From the NCBI RefSeq assembly GCF_024713945.1, contig NC_134680.1, forward strand, positions 2,008,001-2,072,000: 64,000 nt of DNA, given 5' to 3'. Shown here in pieces: positions 55,111-64,000 of this stretch. Both the position numbers and the translations under genes were made by a program. The DNA comes from Dermatophagoides farinae. Lineage: Eukaryota; Arthropoda; Arachnida; Sarcoptiformes; Pyroglyphidae. Below the pieces are notes generated by a model. It saw only the letters and a list, made by a program, of their open reading frames with translations. It searched no databases and was not told where the DNA came from. Positions within the stretch are counted from its first letter, which is position 1, and the number at the start of each line of letters is the position of its first letter.

Positions 55111-57155
55111 AAACCTCTCATCCTTCAGAAAAAAATTCCATGTCACTGGTCAAGTAGAATTTAAAATTTTTTCTCATTTCATTTTCTACTAATCCAAAGA
55201 ATCAGTTTCAATGCAAATGAATGTATGACTGAAATAATAACTGAAGCTAATAACAGCAAATCACGCAATAAAATAAGTTGGTTTATTTTTAGACGTTTTT
55301 TTTGTCTATGGTGGTAACGAAAGGGTTAAACACTAGATACACATGAATTATCTCACTAATAACAATAACAAAAAACTTTTTTTCGCTCGTGTAAATGATG
55401 ATGACAACATCGATGGGTCATTCCGAGATGGAGATGAAATTGTTCTTTTGGAACATTAAATTCAGTACAAACTGGAAATATAAAGTTGTGTAAAGTTTTA
55501 GAAGTTAATTTGATCATCATCATAAAATGGCTGGCGGAATTTTTTTTTTTTTTTTTTTTTTTTTTTGGTGCCACGAATTCTTGTCACGAAATATTTTTTT
55601 TTGTCGTTCAATTCTTTTGATCAATATTATTGTGTTTGGCTGTTTGTCAGTTTGAATTCATAACAAACAAAAAAAATCAAGATCAAAGATGTGCATTTAT
55701 GCCATCTATATATCTAGCCGATAAATGGATATAGCGTTTATTGCATTTTTTTTTAGTCCCAAATGATTTCAGATGATTTTCCTATTGAAAAGTTTTTTCA
55801 TAAATTTTTCAAGTTCATTGGAAACAAACAACAGGAAAAAATAGTTTTTTTTTCTCATGGCAAAAAAATCATCACCAACATTGACAATCGTTCACATCCG
55901 GTGAAATGTTCAATTATTATAATGGCCGAAAACAAAACAAAACAAAAAAAAATATTGAATGGCTAATCACGTATATTATTGTGTTTCAAGTATGAAAGAC
56001 TGATTTTCGAAAAAAAAAAATTTTTTGGAACATGTGGCTGTTTGTCGATTATCTTTATCTGATCTATATATATATATATATGAAATCATCATCATTTTTA
56101 TGTGATTTTTTTTCACCCCATCGTTAATTCATTGAATTTGTTCAAATGTCGGAAAACAAACCGATTTTTTTGAACCGGGAAAATCATATAGTGTTTATAT
56201 CAGGTTTTTTTTCCACTGAAAACATTTTATTCTTTGTTGTTGTTGTTGTTGTCATCAACGACAATTTCAATGTGTGTGTGTGTGCGGATTATCAGGTTTC
56301 AACAAAAAGTTGTGAAACAATGATAAATAAAAAAAAAATATTTACTCTAAATAGAAACAGACATACTTCTTTCGGAATTGATAAGATTGATGAACCTTGA
56401 TACATCCTGTTGATATTGAACATTAATATTGATGATGATGATGATAATTATTATCGATTATGCAAAACAAAAATAAGACAGGGCTTATTTACTTTTTTTT
56501 TTTGACGGAAAAACACGATGGTAGGATGTATTTTAATGATAATAAAAGGAAAAAAATTGAACGACAAACAAGAGATGAAAACAAACATATTTCAGCAAAA
56601 TTAAACAACAAAAATGATGAGATCAAGATAAAATGCAAATTTTTCTCATCATTATTTTATCGATAAATGTCAAAAAAAAAATTTGTATCGAAAATTAAAA
56701 CAAAATAAAAGTCACACTCACACGTTTTGGAACATACAGTAACGCCTCGCTTCTATTGCATTTATAAGTATTTTTTGTATTATGGATAAATCATGGTGAT
56801 CATTTTCTTTTTCGAGAAATGATAAATGAATCGATCCATAAATTACATTTATTTTGTTTGATTATTTTTTTTCATGTTATTTACAATGGTGGTTAACTCT
56901 CGTGTATTATCATTTGAATCATCGAAAAATGATTATGATGATGATGGTTATGGTTTGTCAATACGATATCAAAGATAAGTTTATTATTCATAATGATGGA
57001 TCTTGATCCAAATAAATGACACAAACGAACAACGAAAAAAAAAATTACGAATTTAGCCAATCAACACAATAATAATCTACATTATAATTATGGTTTTAAA
57101 CAAATAAATACTATACGATCGATTATCGACGTATATATTTATTGATGACATGAAT
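55111..57155. other. Intergenic region before the retrotransposon
   Basis: No gene is seen. It includes a T tract of about 27 nt (55540-55566), short (GTT)n and (GT)n runs near 56236-56285, (GAT)n at 56431-56445, and a 19 bp string shared with the interior of the retrotransposon (57004-57022). Confidence 0.6.
57151..57155. repeat. Target-site duplication, left copy (TGAAT)
   Basis: TGAAT directly precedes the 5' LTR and is repeated at 61089-61093 directly after the 3' LTR, as expected for a 5 bp staggered integration. Confidence 0.9.
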
Positions 57156-57398
57156 TGTTAGAGAAAACGATAGACGATGTCTCATGTTTGAACTATGTCT
57201 TCTAACATCTTTGATTGAACCCTAATCATTTTAGATTGAACATGCTTATAAAAGCAGATGTACATAGTGACACATACACTCTCATTCGTTACACACATCT
57301 CTGGCTACACATTATTATTATTATTATGATATTTACATTGTTTCTTTTATCCACATCCATCTTTTCTTGTTCTGTTTAATAAACTAAAATCTCAAACA
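57156..57398 (+). repeat. 5' LTR (243 bp)
   Basis: Begins TGTTAGAGAA and ends CTCAAACA. It contains a TATA box (TATAAAAG from 57247), an initiator-like TCATTC (57282-57287) and AATAAA (57379-57384), so U3, R and U5 can be outlined. By direct reading it is identical to the copy at 60846-61088. Confidence 0.95.
57247..57287 (+). promoter_or_regulatory. LTR core promoter (TATA box and initiator-like site)
   Basis: TATAAAAG at 57247-57254 with TCATTC at 57282-57287, close to the arthropod initiator consensus and at roughly the spacing expected for a retrotransposon transcription start. Confidence 0.6.
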
Positions 57399-57411
57399 GG
57401 TTATGGGTCCA
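57399..57411 (+). other. Primer-binding site, copia type (internal tRNA-iMet half)
   Basis: GGTTATGGGTCCA begins immediately after the LTR. Drosophila copia uses GGTTATGGGCCCA, complementary to the anticodon-region half of initiator tRNA-Met; this copy differs at one base. This supports the copia lineage and half-tRNA priming. Confidence 0.8.
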
Positions 57412-57506
57412 CATGCTTAACGCTGTGATATATCCAGATTTATTTTATTTTTGTGATATCAATTTTTTGAATTTCATCAATTTTTAAAATCTGCGATATA
57501 TGAAAA

Positions 57507-57719
57507 ATGGATTTGTGCTTAAGAAAGAAAGCCAAACGTTTTGCTCAATCATCATCATCCCGCATCACCAATACTTCATCAATGAAGAATCAATCTAATG
57601 GTACATCGATGGTGTTTGCGAAGAAGACAAAAGTCTTAAGCCCGAAAAGGCGTTTTCAACATGTTGATAAATCGATTCGATTGATGAACAACAACGGTAC
57701 GATGATGAAAAGAAACTAA
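57507..57719 (+). CDS. Short basic ORF of the retrotransposon
   Basis: 70 codons rich in Lys, Arg, Ser and Asn (MDLCLRKKAKRFAQ ... RMNNNGTMMKRN-like) ending at TAA 57717-57719. It is in the same frame as the protease-like ORF that follows; only this stop separates them. It may be a Gag remnant, but no CCHC zinc knuckle is present and it is far shorter than a copia Gag. Whether it is translated is unknown. Confidence 0.45.
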   Translation: MDLCLRKKAKRFAQSSSSRITNTSSMKNQSNGTSMVFAKKTKVLSPKRRFQHVDKSIRLMNNNGTMMKRN

Positions 57720-57746
57720 AAGAGAAAAGTTTCTCTGATTGCAGCA

Positions 57747-59177
57747 GTGTCAACGATTGAGTCAGCTGATCTGTCAACACCACCAACGCCAAAATTTTAT
57801 GCTGGATATGGTACAAGTAATCACATGGTGAACGACCAAAATCTATTGATTAATCAGCGTCGTACTGAACAATCAATTCAATCAATGAATGGATCTGTTC
57901 GAAATACCATCATCGGCGATCTTCCTTGTGAAGTTTTCAATGGCAAACAGTGGATCAAAAGTGTAATTAGCGATGTATTGTTCATCCCAGATCAACCATT
58001 TAATGTCATTTCAATCGGTCAACTTTGCCGCGAGAAGGGTTTTAATGGCGAAACTGATAGTGAAGGCATGATCCTTTACCGCCATGATCAACCAATGATG
58101 ATAGCCGATTGGAGCGATCAATATGTCAACATGTTTGAGCTTCGTTTACGTGTCGAGCAAAATACAGCGCCACAAACTATTGCTTCTAATCAAAACGAAT
58201 ACGTTTCAAAACAAATGTGTGCTGCTGAATCATCACCAGATACCATCACCTCAACTATTGAATCAGAGGTTGATGAAGTTGGCCGCAATATCGTCGATGA
58301 ATCTATTATTTCTTGTTTACCTGGTATTTCCAGAAGGGTTGCTGATGATCAACAGCTTCCAAACCGACATATTGGCATCTATGAATCAAATTTTAACGGT
58401 GATACGACACAATTTCCATCCGAAAAGATGATGAACATCGGCGTAAACAACAAAATTCCCTTCTTTGGTTTTAAACGAATCGTGAACGAACATTATGTTC
58501 TTACCGGCAACAATGATATTTTATCCTGGACAAGTGTTTCCAGAGAAGCCGAGATTTTATTGAAAAGTTTTGGATCATTTCCTATTGATGTTTTTAAATC
58601 ATCGTTTTCAAATCGTGGTATTTTTAATGAAATCGGCCATATTATCGATCCGCCACGTAATTTTTATGATTTCAATTATCATTATATCAACATGCAGCAT
58701 ATTGCTCATAGTGTCATGGCTTACCATCAGTCTGGTTCGAAACGAACTGAATCTGATGATGTTTATCGAATCAACGATTTGCCTCTATTGATTAAATCGG
58801 ATGAAATTTTGTACAATTGTCAGATGAAGATGTACCGTATTGGCTATGATATTCCCGATCTCAAATATAAATTTTCTCGTATTGTTACCAAAATTGAATC
58901 GGATGACAATTTTCTTTTGAATTATCAGCCTATTTTCAAATGTTTAATTCCTGACAAATATCCCGATTTGAATCGTTTATCAATTTTTAACAAAAGTGAA
59001 TCGAATTTTCATTTCGTCAATCATCAGATGTTTTCCCATTCTTTTCCTGATGAATTTTCTGGATTTAATTATTCACTTTGGCATCATCTGATTCGAAGCT
59101 CTTTTATTACATTATTTATGAATATCATTTATACCCCCAAAATACCTCAAAATTTGATTTTCATTTCTTATTTCTGA
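57747..59177 (+). CDS. Copia-type protease-like ORF of the retrotransposon, C-terminal part unknown
   Basis: The frame is open for about 476 codons (start not evident; 57747 is a GTG in the same frame as the preceding ORF). Residues about 16-130 match the copia retropepsin region: FYAGYGTSNHMVND, then SVISDVLFIPDQPFNVISIGQLCREKGF and EGMILYRHDQPM. The usual D-S/T-G-A active-site triplet reads G-Y-G-T here, so the catalytic Asp is missing and protease activity is unlikely. The remaining 340 residues match nothing I recognise; a LWHHLIRSS near the end faintly recalls the pre-integrase LWH motif. Confidence 0.6.
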   Translation: MSTIESADLSTPPTPKFYAGYGTSNHMVNDQNLLINQRRTEQSIQSMNGSVRNTIIGDLPCEVFNGKQWIKSVISDVLFIPDQPFNVISIGQLCREKGFNGETDSEGMILYRHDQPMMIADWSDQYVNMFELRLRVEQNTAPQTIASNQNEYVSKQMCAAESSPDTITSTIESEVDEVGRNIVDESIISCLPGISRRVADDQQLPNRHIGIYESNFNGDTTQFPSEKMMNIGVNNKIPFFGFKRIVNEHYVLTGNNDILSWTSVSREAEILLKSFGSFPIDVFKSSFSNRGIFNEIGHIIDPPRNFYDFNYHYINMQHIAHSVMAYHQSGSKRTESDDVYRINDLPLLIKSDEILYNCQMKMYRIGYDIPDLKYKFSRIVTKIESDDNFLLNYQPIFKCLIPDKYPDLNRLSIFNKSESNFHFVNHQMFSHSFPDEFSGFNYSLWHHLIRSSFITLFMNIIYTPKIPQNLIFISYF

Positions 59178-59467
59178 TTATTAAATGGTACGGGGATTTG
59201 ACACAATCATGATCACGTTGTTAAATCTATGATCGATCATACAATGATATGGTTATGCTCTTTATTGTTTGAGCAAACGTCTTAATACACCAACAGGAAC
59301 CATATCGTAAGTTTTTACCTGAAACAATTTCTTGTCTCGTTAAGATGATTATGGACGATGATTTTATGGATCCAAATAAATGACACATACGATTTTGAAC
59401 GTATCAAAAATATCTCCGTAGTCGATACCGACTATGATGTTTCATCTACCCGGACAGACCATCATCT

Positions 59468-59872
59468 GTGATATTTGCCAAGGATGCTGTTTTGTGTCAC
59501 AATAATGAATTGCCATTGCAATCTACGAAAAATTGCGAGCCAACCATTATTATCAAAATTCATGGTATAACAATCAACAATCATATGATCATTTCAAATT
59601 ATTATTTTTCTATCAATTTTGGACGACGAATTTATTTAACAAATTTCCATATTTTCACATTTATTGAATATTCCACGAACAATCGTGATGAAAACATTGT
59701 TAAATCAGTGAAAATCAAGTTTCTAATGATCGGATATTTTATCGAAAATTATTTATGTTATCGTTATTATCGACGCATTGAGCTATCCGATCCTATCACT
59801 ATTTATGAAAAATCTCATGAAATGATCGTATTTAAAGATTTTTACAGCTATCAATCCATCGTTTTAAGGTAA
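59468..59872 (+). CDS. Retrotransposon interior ORF, unknown
   Basis: 134 codons in the 3' half of the element, rich in Ile, Tyr and Asn, no recognisable domain. It could be a decayed pol segment or captured sequence. Its composition resembles the C-terminal half of the previous ORF. Confidence 0.3.
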   Translation: MIFAKDAVLCHNNELPLQSTKNCEPTIIIKIHGITINNHMIISNYYFSINFGRRIYLTNFHIFTFIEYSTNNRDENIVKSVKIKFLMIGYFIENYLCYRYYRRIELSDPITIYEKSHEMIVFKDFYSYQSIVLR

Positions 59873-59924
59873 ATATGATCAATACAACGTAAAGATTATC
59901 ACCATCGATTCCGGTGGAAACGTT

Positions 59925-60302
59925 TTGAATTTTCTCGACACAAATTGTGGTGGAAGCAGCATATCTTTAATTTTCGAAAAGTTTTCTGGTACTGGCAATT
60001 TGATCATTGCTCAAATTATTTATGAACAGTCTTATAGACGTTTACCAGCAGCTGCTAAGTTTTTCCGTAGACAAAACGACATATTTTTAGCATCATTTGA
60101 AAGAAGTCTACTGACCACCGATCATGTATTGTCAAATTATTCACCATTACTATTCGACATAGCTGGTAAAATCGCAAAACCAAGATTGGTTGACCCACCA
60201 CCAAATGAAATTATTGTATCACGTAAACGGGTTGACTTGAAGATTCGATTGTATCGAACCATACGATTTGATGATTTGATCATATCTCAAATATTTATTT
60301 GA
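59925..60302 (+). CDS. Retrotransposon interior ORF, unknown
   Basis: 125 codons, beginning MNFLDTNCGGSSISLIFEKF and containing YRRLPAAAKFFRRQNDIFLA. No catalytic motif of reverse transcriptase, integrase or RNase H is visible. Translation is not demonstrated. Confidence 0.3.
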   Translation: MNFLDTNCGGSSISLIFEKFSGTGNLIIAQIIYEQSYRRLPAAAKFFRRQNDIFLASFERSLLTTDHVLSNYSPLLFDIAGKIAKPRLVDPPPNEIIVSRKRVDLKIRLYRTIRFDDLIISQIFI

Positions 60303-60327
60303 TCCTTTAGACGAAACCTTTTATTGG

Positions 60328-60915
60328 TTGAATTTAACCTACGAAGTAGATTTACGTTTGTATTTAGTTTCATTTGATCATATCGTATCTGTCCTACAAA
60401 CAATGAACAAACCAAAATGGTACAATTTTATCTCTTATTTGGACGTATTGATCAATTTCTACAAATCTACTTCGATTGGACGAAACCGATTACAAAATAA
60501 CTTGGATTTTGAAAATATCCGTATTAAGTTATATTTATTGTTCATCAAGCGATTGATATTCGCACGCATCGTTTTACTCGCTCATTTTCTGCTCAACACA
60601 TTGGTCAATATCAAAACGGTAAAACGATTATATCGATATTTTGATTGGATTTCAATCGAACTTCTGGATTTATTATCGATGGATTACTTGGTATCATTGA
60701 AGCCCATTTCCATGGCATTTAAATTATTGGTCCTTTCATTTGTGGACATATTCATTCATCATATCCATCGTTACAACATTCAATTTGTTTTTGATCACAT
60801 TTTTATTTCCAGGAGCTGCATGACCATTCGTCAATCGGGTGGAAGTGTTAGAGAAAACGATAGACGATGTCTCATGTTTGAACTATGTCTTCTAACATCT
60901 TTGATTGAACCCTAA
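60328..60915 (+). CDS. Retrotransposon interior ORF running into the 3' LTR, unknown
   Basis: 195 codons; the last 23 lie inside the 3' LTR. The product is strongly hydrophobic and basic (RLIFARIVLLAHFLLNTLVN, FKLLVLSFVDIFIHHIHRY). It could be a membrane-spanning product or a chance frame in AT-rich sequence. No homology is recognised. Confidence 0.3.
   Translation: MNLTYEVDLRLYLVSFDHIVSVLQTMNKPKWYNFISYLDVLINFYKSTSIGRNRLQNNLDFENIRIKLYLLFIKRLIFARIVLLAHFLLNTLVNIKTVKRLYRYFDWISIELLDLLSMDYLVSLKPISMAFKLLVLSFVDIFIHHIHRYNIQFVFDHIFISRSCMTIRQSGGSVRENDRRCLMFELCLLTSLIEP
60837..60845 (+). other. Candidate polypurine tract
   Basis: GGGTGGAAG lies directly before the 3' LTR, the expected place for plus-strand priming. 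One T interrupts the tract, so the call is positional. Confidence 0.45.
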
Positions 60916-61088
60916 TCATTTTAGATTGAACATGCTTATAAAAGCAGATGTACATAGTGACACATACACTCTCATTCGTTACACACATCTCTGGCTACAC
61001 ATTATTATTATTATTATGATATTTACATTGTTTCTTTTATCCACATCCATCTTTTCTTGTTCTGTTTAATAAACTAAAATCTCAAACA
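60846..61088 (+). repeat. 3' LTR (243 bp)
   Basis: Same 243 bp sequence as 57156-57398, with no difference found on reading. AATAAA at 61069-61074 would serve polyadenylation. Confidence 0.95.
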
Positions 61089-61093
61089 TGAAT
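61089..61093. repeat. Target-site duplication, right copy (TGAAT)
   Basis: Matches 57151-57155 exactly. Confidence 0.9.
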
Positions 61094-64000
61094 ATGATAT
61101 GATTTTTTTTCCATCTGGTTGAATATAACTACACAAAATAAAAATAAAAATTAAATAGGAATCATTCAGATTGATATATTTTTTTTGCTCTTAGTTCATA
61201 TTTGAAAAAAAAACAAAATCAAATTAACTAAATTGGTGTTTACATTGCGAACAAAATGAATGAATGAATGAATGAAATGGTGGAAAAAAACGAAAGAATG
61301 ATATGAGATTAGATTATCACTTCGATGAACAATGAATGTAAATGTTTGCGATTAAATAAAAAAAACAAAAAAAAACGAAAGAAAAATCTGATAAACGAAA
61401 CGACAGGACAAAAAGAAAAAATATAGACAGAACAATTTGGTTAATGGATCAAGAATAAATGTGGAATCCAAATGATAGAATGGCAAAAAAAAACGAGAAA
61501 CGAAAAAAGATGAGATAAGATTTTCAAAGAAATGTATGTAGTTTTTGCGTAAAAAAAAAGAAAATTTACATTTCAAATTTTTTTTTTGTCAAATTTTCTA
61601 GCCAAATTCACCTGTACTGTTATAATAGCAGAATTCTTAAAAAAAAAAAAATTTTTTATCAGAAAAAGAAATTCATATCCAACATTACAGACAGGCATAA
61701 TCAATTTTTTCTCGAAAAAAAAATCTAGATTCTATACACTAAGAACGCTGATAAAACACTTTTTTTATGGAATCAGTTCATTCAGTGAAAAAATTCAATG
61801 AAATGTGAAAAATCCAAAAAAAAAAAAAAAAAAAATGACAAAATAGATTCGCTCATTGGAATCGTTCTCTGAGTGTATATATTTTATGGATGTCATTTCA
61901 AGGCCCGGCAAGGATAACAAATGAAATGTGTTTTTTTTTCTTGACCAAACAAAACACATTTACACAACGAAAAAAGAATCCTATCACAATAATAGTATAT
62001 ATACTCTAGTTAGTAGTGTATTCAGTAAGTTAGTCCAAAAGTCAGTTATAAACAGGAAAAAAAAGTCACGTGCCCAACAAATGCCAAAATTTTTATCGTA
62101 TTTCCACCATAATAGTATGAATAAAATTTAGTTTGATTAATTAATTAATTATCTCCAATGAACATACACATGCACACAGGACAGAGACACGCCGTATATG
62201 TTTAATTAGATTTTTTTCATTCTATTTGTACCATTCATTCAAAACACACACACACAGTATGAGAGAAAGAAAAACGACAAAATCAAAAAAAAAAATCCAA
62301 AATTCATTCTATAGTGAATCATTCAATGATGATCATCATCATCGTTTGAAAAAAATGGATAAAAAAAAACGAGAATTAGATTCATTCAATATTCATAATA
62401 TTTAAATATGATTTCCATTCATAAGAAACGAATGAAACATTTATGAAGACAACATACAACAAACAAGAATCAAATAATAAATATTTCTGGGTGAATGGCC
62501 AATGATCATGATGATGATCATCAGATAATAATATTGGTAAATTGAACCAAAATAAAATCACACATTTTCATATATTAACCACACGACAACAACAACAACA
62601 ATAACAACAAAATTTGTATCACATATCGGATATTATATAATATATAATGTTATGTATTTCGATATACATGTATATATATGGATAACAAGAGATTTGACAA
62701 CCAACGGGACAATCATTAATCACCAAAAATATCAACATGAAATGAAACAGAATGAAATGATTCATAACAAGAATGAATAGAAATAAAAAAACAAACAAAC
62801 AAACAAACATACAACAATAACAACTATAGTGGCACAGCAATCTTATTTTGGGATTTATAGTTTAAAAAAAAAACAAAAATTTCAATTTTAAAAATAGACA
62901 AAAAAAAGAAATTAACTGGATTCAGAGAAAATAGAAAAAAAATTAAACAAAATATCCATTGCCATTATTCTTTATACGCTCAAATTTCATCAACTTTATC
63001 ATTTATTAAAACAGAGAAATTCTGATTGCCAAAAAAAAACAATAACAACAACAACAACATTGAAAACATCGACATTAACATATTCTTTCACAACAACGAC
63101 AACAACAATGACGAACCATAATAATCGTTTAATTTTATTGATGATAATTAAAAATTATGACATGTAAAATGTGTTTTACTATGTGTATTCAACATTGAAT
63201 TCACAATAATAAAATGGCAAAGTTTTCATCAACAACATTTCTGATTCAGGAATATTAGGGAAAAACGAAAAGAAAGAAAGAAAGAAAAAAAAAACAGTAG
63301 TAGTAAAATGTGTTCGATAAACATTTAAGTTTCAAATAATAATAAATTTTCGCATCTAAAAACTTGTATCCGAATATCATACAAATTTACTTTCATCGAT
63401 GTAAATAATCTGAAAAAAATAAAACAATTCTCAAGAATGGAATCATCATTAAATTTATCGTTGATTTTCGAATGTGTATATGTTATACAACCATTATTAT
63501 CACGATGACAACGAAAATTTCATACAAAAAATAAAAGTTGAAATATTTTTGTTGCTATAATGGTAGCAATGATGACAATAAATCTCATCATCATCACCAT
63601 GTGTTTGTGTGTGTGTGTGTGTATCGTTTTTAAAAAGTTTTTCTTCTTGTTGTTCGGAAGAATTCGGGAGAAAAATTTTTGTCTTAATCTTATTCACAAT
63701 TATTCTTTTCTCTACTGGCTCATTGTCAAAGTTGTGATTGTGAAAATTGTAGCCAATAATAACATTATAATCATTGATGACGATTCCAGATTGACTGATA
63801 TTTCCTCGTGTAATAGGCAAATGGATGGTGTGTGTGTGTGTGTGGGAATGAATTGATCTGGATCATCGTTTTCATTTCGTTCACACTTGTCACACTAAGA
63901 TATTAAACACAAACTTTATTTAAATTATTCTATTTTTTGTTTTTATCGATCAAACTCGAATTCCGAAACCATAAGTGAAAATATCCTCTTTTTTTTGGAA
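61094..64000. other. Intergenic region, right end, no gene seen
   Basis: A- and T-rich with short (CA)n, (GT)n (63600-63622, 63827-63843), (CAA)n (62586-62610, 63040-63058) and TTAATTAATTAATTA near 62136. No frame has protein-like composition or a splice chain. Confidence 0.6.

What the first reader, a model, noticed from the sequence alone, without database searches (positions are those of the whole stretch)
57156..61088. Young non-autonomous copia-type element with identical LTRs but no recognisable polymerase
LTRs of 243 bp appear identical, the TGAAT target duplication is intact and the primer-binding site is one base from copia's. Yet the interior lacks Gag zinc knuckle, integrase, reverse transcriptase and RNase H motifs. 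A recent jump by a copy that cannot encode its own enzymes implies trans-mobilisation by an autonomous relative, and points to a possibly undescribed non-autonomous copia family in this genome.
Basis: partly seen in the sequence, partly recalled or inferred. Interest (0 to 1): 0.8.

Follow-up and report, generated by a model that had tools for sequence, protein, structure and literature searches.

The report
Non-autonomous copia family with dead Pol
This is a recently inserted copy of a small family of mite copia-type jumping genes that carry a long protein frame built from dead enzyme parts and must borrow a relative's enzymes to move; the damage seen in this particular copy looks largely like an assembly error.

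Summary
The window holds an LTR retrotransposon with identical 243-bp LTRs, a TGAAT target duplication, a copia-type primer site and no RT. No RVT_2 match lies in any of the four, so they must be mobilised in trans; 19 RVT_2-bearing frames of 1,247-1,399 aa in the same genome are candidate helpers.

Two corrections. First, the interior is not unrecognisable: it holds a copia protease domain (Pol_BBD) whose catalytic Asp is lost. The other three copies have one unbroken 1,244-1,259-codon frame with that protease, weak and clear integrase relics, a weak second protease relic and an unrecognised C-terminus. Among these three, codons evolve almost neutrally, yet no stop or frameshift has appeared.

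Second, most of the 'breaks' in the window copy are probably not biological: bases that no intact copy explains follow the host flanks in order. The likeliest cause is a consensus that blended inserted and empty alleles, which would make this insertion polymorphic.

Class: new variant of known non-autonomous LTR elements.

The parts
57151..57155 (.). Target-site duplication TGAAT, left copy
   Evidence: Sequence; same five bases at 61089-61093
57156..57398 (+). 5' LTR (TGTTAG...CAAACA); TATAAAA at 57247, AATAAA at 57378
   Evidence: Identical to the 3' LTR; signals at LTR positions 92 and 223
57399..57416 (+). Primer-binding site GGTTATGGGTCCACATGC
   Evidence: First 12 bases equal those of four of 11 other copia elements of the genome
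57504..57719 (+). Open frame, 71 aa: start of the family's long frame
   Evidence: corresponds to the start of the 1,259-aa frame of L009
57720..59177 (+). Open frame, 485 aa: protease relic, degenerate integrase relic and following sequence
   Evidence: collinear with the L009 frame
57807..58043 (+). Copia protease domain Pol_BBD (PF22936) without catalytic Asp
   Evidence: E 4.3e-11; D in 14 of 14 other copia loci aligned, G here (aligned as)
57664..57725 (+). Stretch that differs from all three intact copies; possible chimeric stretch 1
   Evidence: fits the flank series only in the permissive alignment
59108..59890 (+). Chimeric stretch 2: intact-copy blocks interleaved with host-flank bases in flank order
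59438..59872 (+). Open frame, 144 aa: remnant of second integrase relic
   Evidence: matches to the L009 frame
59868..60302 (+). Open frame, 144 aa, C-terminal part of the family protein
60280..60915 (+). Open frame, 211 aa: unrecognised C-terminus running into the 3' LTR
   Evidence: C10 counterpart
60837..60845 (+). Polypurine-tract-like GGGTGGAAG before the 3' LTR
60846..61088 (+). 3' LTR
   Evidence: Identical to the 5' LTR
61089..61093 (.). Target-site duplication TGAAT, right copy
56850..57155 (.). Host left flank whose bases recur, in order, inside chimeric stretch 2 (with about 61094-61117 on the right)

Best explanation
The feature is a recent insertion of a four-copy, non-autonomous copia-superfamily LTR retrotransposon. 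Shown: the four copies keep the cis signals looked for (LTRs with TATA and poly(A) signals, primer site, purine tract, 5-bp target duplications), and no RVT_2 match lies in any. Three copies carry one frame of about 1,250 codons made of a protease domain without its catalytic Asp, a weak integrase relic, a weak second protease relic, a clear second integrase relic and an unrecognised C-terminus. Inferred: an ancestral copia element lost gag and RT and duplicated its protease-integrase part; its RNA is now packaged, reverse transcribed and integrated by autonomous copia elements of the same genome. The frame stays open while its residues drift, so being translatable, or a weakly constrained structural product, matters more than any enzyme activity. 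Also inferred: the window copy is one of these, assembled as a blend of inserted and empty alleles, so the insertion was probably polymorphic in the sequenced sample.
For: Four LTR pairs, each identical (243/243, 243/243, 260/260, 293/293), each with a 5-bp duplication; 8 LTR matches in the genome, all in these pairs. Of 45 RVT_2 matches in the genome none lies in the four elements, while 19 lie in open frames of 1,247-1,399 aa. Unbroken frames of 1259, 1259 and 1244 aa against at most 178 aa in 300 shuffles of the C10 interior. Pol_BBD in the window copy and in L009. Protein similarity to the copia element L073/L029 in four collinear pieces, two clear and two weak. Catalytic Asp of protease present in 14 of 14 other copia loci (two of the rows, L051 and L073, are one element), replaced by G in the four copies (alignment). 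Mosaic: the window copy's LTR equals C10's over 243 bases, but it sides with C8 at 9 of 9 two-to-two sites from 58533 to 59413 and with C10 at 6 of 6 from 59751 to 60403, as co-packaged RNAs would give. Chimera: a 24-base word inside the element (one base A or T) recurs in the genome only in this insertion's own left flank; unexplained bases match the empty site in order, score 32.4 against a best of 21.4 in 500 other stretches of the window and 23.7 in 500 shuffles (gap cost 4).
Against: No helper is identified: the LTRs of the 11 elements laid out share only short termini and the primer-site core with the family (by eye). Selection on residues is not shown: dN/dS is 0.54 to 0.89 and synonymous counts do not significantly exceed the neutral simulation (P 0.42, 0.08, 0.79). 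The absence of stops has nominal P 0.03, 0.02 and 0.05 in three comparisons that are not independent. The first integrase relic and second protease relic are weak alone (hhalign E 0.001 at probability 21% and E 0.009 at 4.5%), though both beat 200 of 200 shuffles, narrowly (71 against 69, 73 against 66). Residues 1-100 and 400-520 are no clear match (7 and 51 of 200 shuffles reach them). On the chimera: the 16-base core of the 24-base word also occurs once on C1. In the unmasked test the intact C8 stretch itself scores 39.3 against the left flank, the window copy 45.9; the excess of 6.6 only just passes the best of 200 controls, 6.1, and the right flank alone shows no excess (23.3 against a mean of 28.8). 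At gap cost 3 the best shuffle (47.3) comes near the empty site (49.4), and with the 24-base word masked 1 and 7 of 500 shuffles reach it at two gap costs (0 of 500 other stretches at either). The empty-site junction is not elsewhere in the assembly. Single two-to-two sites at 58380, 59558 and 60558 side with C3, and some of the sites counted lie in the chimeric stretch.
Confidence: 0.75

Rival explanations
1. The breaks in the window copy are real. After insertion the copy was shattered in place by repeated double-strand breaks or serial template switching that used nearby host DNA as filler.
For: The 24-base filler recurs only in this insertion's own flank, which fits local templating. The breaks are clustered, and outside the two stretches the copy has only 3 of its 62 private substitutions.
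Against: The unexplained bases follow the flank in order over about 300 bases (56806-57131) and in the permissive alignment pass the empty-site junction; controls. Repair fillers would not be expected to form one ordered series. The other three copies show no such breaks.
Confidence: 0.12
2. The whole family is a decayed copia lineage carried passively. The long frame is open only because all copies stem from a recent master that happened to be open; the frame has no role.
For: dN/dS near neutral; catalytic residues lost; few copies.
Against: Shuffles of the interior reach at most 178 aa. Parts at roughly 25-43% identity to another copia Pol are still in one frame. 4 of 4 indels inside the frame are multiples of three, against 1 of 6 in LTR and leader of the C8-C3 pair and 2 of 10 in the LTR of the C10-C8 pair (counted by eye). 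No stop where 2.9 to 3.8 were expected per pair.
Confidence: 0.35
3. The element is autonomous, with enzymes too diverged for profiles to see.
For: Long frame in Pol order; the second integrase relic keeps two of three acidic residues.
Against: The same Pfam scan finds gag, protease, integrase and RVT_2 in its nearest copia relative but only the protease domain in L009. The protease lacks its Asp, the integrase zinc-finger residues are not kept in the first relic and the third acidic position is D for E in the second. The C-terminus is no better than shuffles (65 and 28 of 200 reach its score).
Confidence: 0.04

Closest known systems
LARD (large retrotransposon derivatives; length over 4 kb seen in a passage of PMC6696364; further detail recalled)
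   Same: LTRs, primer site and purine tract with a long interior and no enzymes; thought to be moved by autonomous partners
   Different: Interior is one long open frame with Pol relics rather than non-coding DNA; three copies are 4.3-4.4 kb and the assembled window copy is 3.9 kb; 4 copies only
BARE-2 and TR_GAG (named as non-autonomous classes in a passage of PMC6696364; their gene content is recalled)
   Same: Non-autonomous LTR elements that depend on a relative
   Different: BARE-2 keeps pol and lacks a working gag, TR-GAG keeps gag; here neither a recognisable gag nor RT was found
Tos17 of rice (abstract of PMC3977881)
   Same: Copia element present in few copies, reported as active yet non-autonomous, and lacking gag
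   Different: The abstract names gag as what is missing; here RT is missing too, and protease and integrase are degenerate
TRIM, Helenus and Ajax (abstract of PMC10886601)
   Same: LTRs, with primer site and polypurine tract stated for Helenus; fungal and plant Helenus and Ajax make 5-bp target duplications; thought to depend on autonomous elements
   Different: TRIMs are short and Helenus and Ajax carry tRNA or 5S sequences in the LTR; this family has a frame of about 1,250 codons
Other copia elements of the same genome (loci L073/L029, L050/L028)
   Same: Primer-site core, LTR ends, Pol order; protease about 40% identical
   Different: They have long frames with RVT_2; in L073/L029 also the active-site Asp and gag, integrase and RVT_2 by Pfam

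Membership tests
Copia-superfamily LTR retrotransposon | Paired LTRs TG...CA with 5-bp target duplication | tested here: met
   4 of 4 copies
Copia-superfamily LTR retrotransposon | Copia-type primer site and polypurine tract | tested here: met
   against 11 other copia elements of the genome
Copia-superfamily LTR retrotransposon | Pol domains in copia order with copia-type sequence | tested here: inconclusive
   Protease then integrase relics match copia elements; RT, whose position defines copia, was not found
Non-autonomous LTR retrotransposon | No functional enzyme set but structural evidence of transposition | tested here: met

Non-autonomous LTR retrotransposon | Mobilised by an identified autonomous partner | not testable with these tools
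   Candidates exist but none of the 11 laid out shares the LTRs
TRIM | Very small (a few hundred bases to 4 kb in PMC6696364), no coding capacity (recalled) | tested here: not met
   Three copies are 4.3-4.4 kb with frames of 1,244-1,259 codons; the window copy as assembled is 3.9 kb
LARD | Longer than 4 kb | tested here: met
   Three copies are 4.3-4.4 kb; the window copy as assembled is 3.9 kb
LARD | Interior non-coding (recalled) | tested here: not met
TR-GAG | Encodes gag (recalled) | tested here: not met
   No gag Pfam match in the window frames or L009; no zinc knuckle in six frames of four copies
BARE-2-like | Keeps RT and integrase (recalled) | tested here: not met

The most novel reading that the evidence does not exclude
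A copia-derived element has replaced its enzymes with a long, non-enzymatic Pol-relic protein whose frame, not its residues, is under selection. The product, or the act of translating it, would help its RNA survive or enter a helper's particles: a parasite of a parasite with a protein of its own.
Probability: 0.2. Interest if true: 0.6.

Novelty: new variant of a known kind. Interest (0 to 1): 0.38.

Why it matters
Non-autonomous LTR elements are usually described as having lost a gene or all coding capacity; a family that keeps a 1,250-codon frame of dead protease-integrase relics does not fit those classes neatly, and would allow a test of whether an open frame in itself helps such RNAs to move. 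The chimeric assembly matters practically: part of a transposon's apparent decay can come from a consensus that blends inserted and empty alleles, and such a blend can itself flag a polymorphic, hence recent, insertion.

Tried and rejected
Spliced introns as the cause of the gaps in the window copy: rejected, the gaps are of many sizes down to one base and do not look intron-like (by eye). Gradual decay: rejected, 59 of 62 private substitutions of the window copy lie in the two stretches 57666-57685 and 59177-59883. Reverse-transcription errors before insertion: rejected because one 24-base filler recurs only in this insertion's own host flank; its 16-base core also occurs once on C1. In-place shattering: kept as a rival only.

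RT relic in the C-terminus: a weak 41-aa similarity to the RT end of L029 (E 0.08) was no better than shuffles and weak in profile comparison, where one of three column-shuffled controls scored about as well. One structure prediction of the 211-aa C-terminal frame gave mean pLDDT 50 and was not used. A PDB search with the N-terminal 304 aa of L009 found 0 matches at E up to 1. Pfam also listed MAM (E 0.086) and Pox_A14 (E 0.026) in two window frames, both below the curated cut-off and ignored. The sigma-70 promoter scan does not bear on a eukaryote. Paper searches returned 141, 6, 1 and 0 papers, seen as listings except for the papers named in the report.

Rows and data dropped: the first C1 row was printed in the wrong orientation and is ignored; of 12 elements paired, C5c was left out for lack of a clear LTR pair, leaving 11. 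In one search the C3 element began one base late, so its LTR test read 'False'; one search corrected it, but the same file was used, so C3's private count includes misaligned LTR-start columns. In one search the weak-domain test used 5 of the 14 'five' and 5 of the 18 'three' loci. One search used 13 of the 14 unexplained runs that one search lists in 59160-59900 (59751-59754, which matches C10, was left out). In one search, 132 of 153 unexplained bases matched the empty site, but that alignment is permissive and no control was made for this count; its score was 113.5 against at most 97.4 in 500 other stretches, 92.4 for the reverse complement, 71.4 reversed and 99.7 with the two flanks swapped.
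Full report
What is there. The window is part of contig C4 of an unnamed 62.4-Mb genome in 22 contigs. The genome carries three matches over the cut-off to the mite allergen family Blo-t-5 (best E 2.6e-53; 0 of 14 control genomes ring), so it is very probably a mite. The element at 57156-61088 has identical LTRs (243 of 243), TGAAT on both sides, a TATA box and a poly(A) signal in the LTR, the primer site GGTTATGGGTCC and a purine-rich tract before the 3' LTR.

Family. The LTR finds 8 places in the genome, which form four pairs, and the interior finds the same four elements: C4 (window), C10, C8 and C3. All four LTR pairs are identical within themselves (243, 243, 260 and 293 bp) and all four have their own 5-bp duplication. 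No solo LTR was found, but the search states that its counts are lower bounds. The window copy's LTR equals that of C10 over 243 of 243 bases. Ungapped identity between elements is 0.972 to 0.983, so the sources had diverged before the recent insertions. At two-to-two sites the window copy is a mosaic: 9 of 9 sites with C8 from 58533 to 59413, 6 of 6 with C10 from 59751 to 60403, and single sites siding with C3 at 58380, 59558 and 60558; some of these sites lie in the chimeric stretch described below. Template switching between co-packaged RNAs would give this (inference).

Coding content. C10, C8 and C3 have a single frame of 1259, 1259 and 1244 aa that starts about 100 bases after the 5' LTR and ends in the 3' LTR. 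Three hundred mononucleotide shuffles of the C10 interior reached at most 178 aa. Compared with a profile led by the copia element L073, the frame holds, in order: a clear protease domain (C10 residues about 104-233; hhalign E 1.1e-32), a weak integrase relic (about 330-397; E 0.001, probability 21%), a weak second protease relic (about 541-604; E 0.009, probability 4.5%) and a clear second integrase relic (about 667-862; E 1e-8 and 7e-7). All four pieces beat 200 of 200 shuffles against five loci, the two weak ones narrowly. Residues 1-100 (7 of 200 shuffles reach the score), 400-520 (51 of 200) and the C-terminal pieces 930-1100 and 1090-1238 (65 and 28 of 200) show no clear match. Pfam sees only Pol_BBD over its cut-off in the window frames and in L009 (L010 and L011 were not scanned), whereas the same scan of L073 and L029 sees gag, protease, gag-pre-integrase, integrase, SH3 and RVT_2. 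The catalytic Asp of the protease is present in 14 of 14 other copia loci aligned, two of which are one element, and is G in the four copies (alignment). The zinc-finger residues of integrase are not kept in the first relic (by eye), and the third acidic residue is D for E in the second. No zinc knuckle and no YVDD occur in six frames of the four interiors; the looser pattern is met by FIDD on the minus strand of all four and by YGDD in the three intact copies, in a plus frame that is not the long frame.

Is the frame under selection? Between the three intact copies dN/dS is 0.69, 0.54 and 0.89, and synonymous changes do not significantly exceed a neutral simulation (P 0.42, 0.08, 0.79). By part, the first 250 codons give 0.32, 0.31 and 0.79 and codons 520-930 give 0.98, 0.71 and 1.65, on few changes and without a test. 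Residues are thus nearly free. Yet no stop has arisen where 3.3, 3.8 and 2.9 were expected (P 0.03, 0.02, 0.05; comparisons not independent), and the four indels inside the frame are all multiples of three, against 1 of 6 in LTR and leader of the C8-C3 pair and 2 of 10 in the LTR of the C10-C8 pair (counted by eye). The data favour a retained frame with little constraint on sequence; they do not prove it.

Who moves it. None of the 45 RVT_2 matches in the genome (40 over the cut-off) lies in the four elements; 19 lie in frames of 1,247-1,399 aa. Eleven elements whose LTRs were laid out share the primer-site core GGTTATGGG, and four share all 12 bases with the family. The trans-mobilising partner is therefore probably in the genome, but the LTRs do not tell which it is.

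The window copy's breaks. Against the intact C8 copy the window copy shows many small gaps and odd bases in 57664-57725 and 59108-59890, plus one gap near 60288. Fifty-nine of its 62 private substitutions lie in the first two stretches. A 24-base word at 59369-59392 occurs twice in the genome (A or T allowed at one place): there and at 57005-57028, in this insertion's own left flank; its 16-base core occurs once more, on C1. Aligning 59060-59950 to the left flank gives an ordered series from 56806 to 57131, score 45.9; but the intact C8 stretch also scores 39.3, the excess of 6.6 only just passes the best of 200 controls (6.1), and the right flank alone shows no excess. When only bases not explained by an intact copy, plus four on either side, are aligned to the joined flanks, the series appears to pass the insertion point and the score is 113.5, against at most 97.4 in 500 other stretches. 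Restricted to 59160-59900, the empty site scores 82.5, 49.4 and 32.4 at three gap costs, against best scores of 70.5, 36.5 and 21.4 in 500 other stretches of the window and 74.5, 47.3 and 23.7 in 500 dinucleotide shuffles. With the 24-base word masked the signal is weaker: 0 of 500 other stretches at either of two gap costs, but 1 and 7 of 500 shuffles, reach it. Ordered interleaving of two unrelated sequences is what I would expect when reads of an empty allele are forced onto an inserted one by a consensus caller; I know of no repair process that does this (inference; a paper search on such chimeras returned none). The empty junction is not elsewhere in the assembly at up to 2 mismatches, as expected if haplotypes were merged, but also if there is no empty allele. 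The insertion was therefore probably polymorphic in the sample, and its open-frame damage should not be read as biology without the raw reads. The gap near 60288 was not tested.

Literature. Searches for non-autonomous copia elements with 'mite genome', for 'house dust mite' with copia and retrotransposon, and for insects 'lacking reverse transcriptase' returned 0 papers. A Dermatophagoides/copia search returned 3; in the scabies-mite genome paper (passages, PMC4641413) copia is only named among repeat types. Known classes were compared from passages of PMC6696364 and the abstracts of PMC10886601 and PMC3977881. The library holds open-licence papers only and Repbase was not searched, so the family may be described elsewhere.

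Verdict. A new variant of a known kind: a young, low-copy, non-autonomous copia family with an unusual long Pol-relic frame, seen here through a probably chimeric copy.

Noticed in passing
window 59108-59890 and 57664-57725: Element sequence interleaved with bases of the empty-site allele in order (second stretch; the first only in a permissive alignment); probable haplotype-merging artefact of the assembly, which would make the insertion polymorphic.
   Followed up: yes
L009 (C10 copy), stretch corresponding to window 58785-59289: 27 of the 42 private substitutions of C10 cluster here, and C10's second integrase relic scores higher against copia profiles than that of C8 or C3; possible recombination with another lineage.
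   Followed up: partly
L050/L028 (C1:3694267) and L051/L029 (C8:454634): Copia elements with identical LTR pairs and open frames of 1,355 and 1,354 aa with RVT_2: they look recently active.
   Followed up: partly
G000:C4:4170433-4171937: Two strong Blo-t-5 family matches lie about 0.8 kb apart on opposite strands, indicating a mite genome.
   Followed up: no
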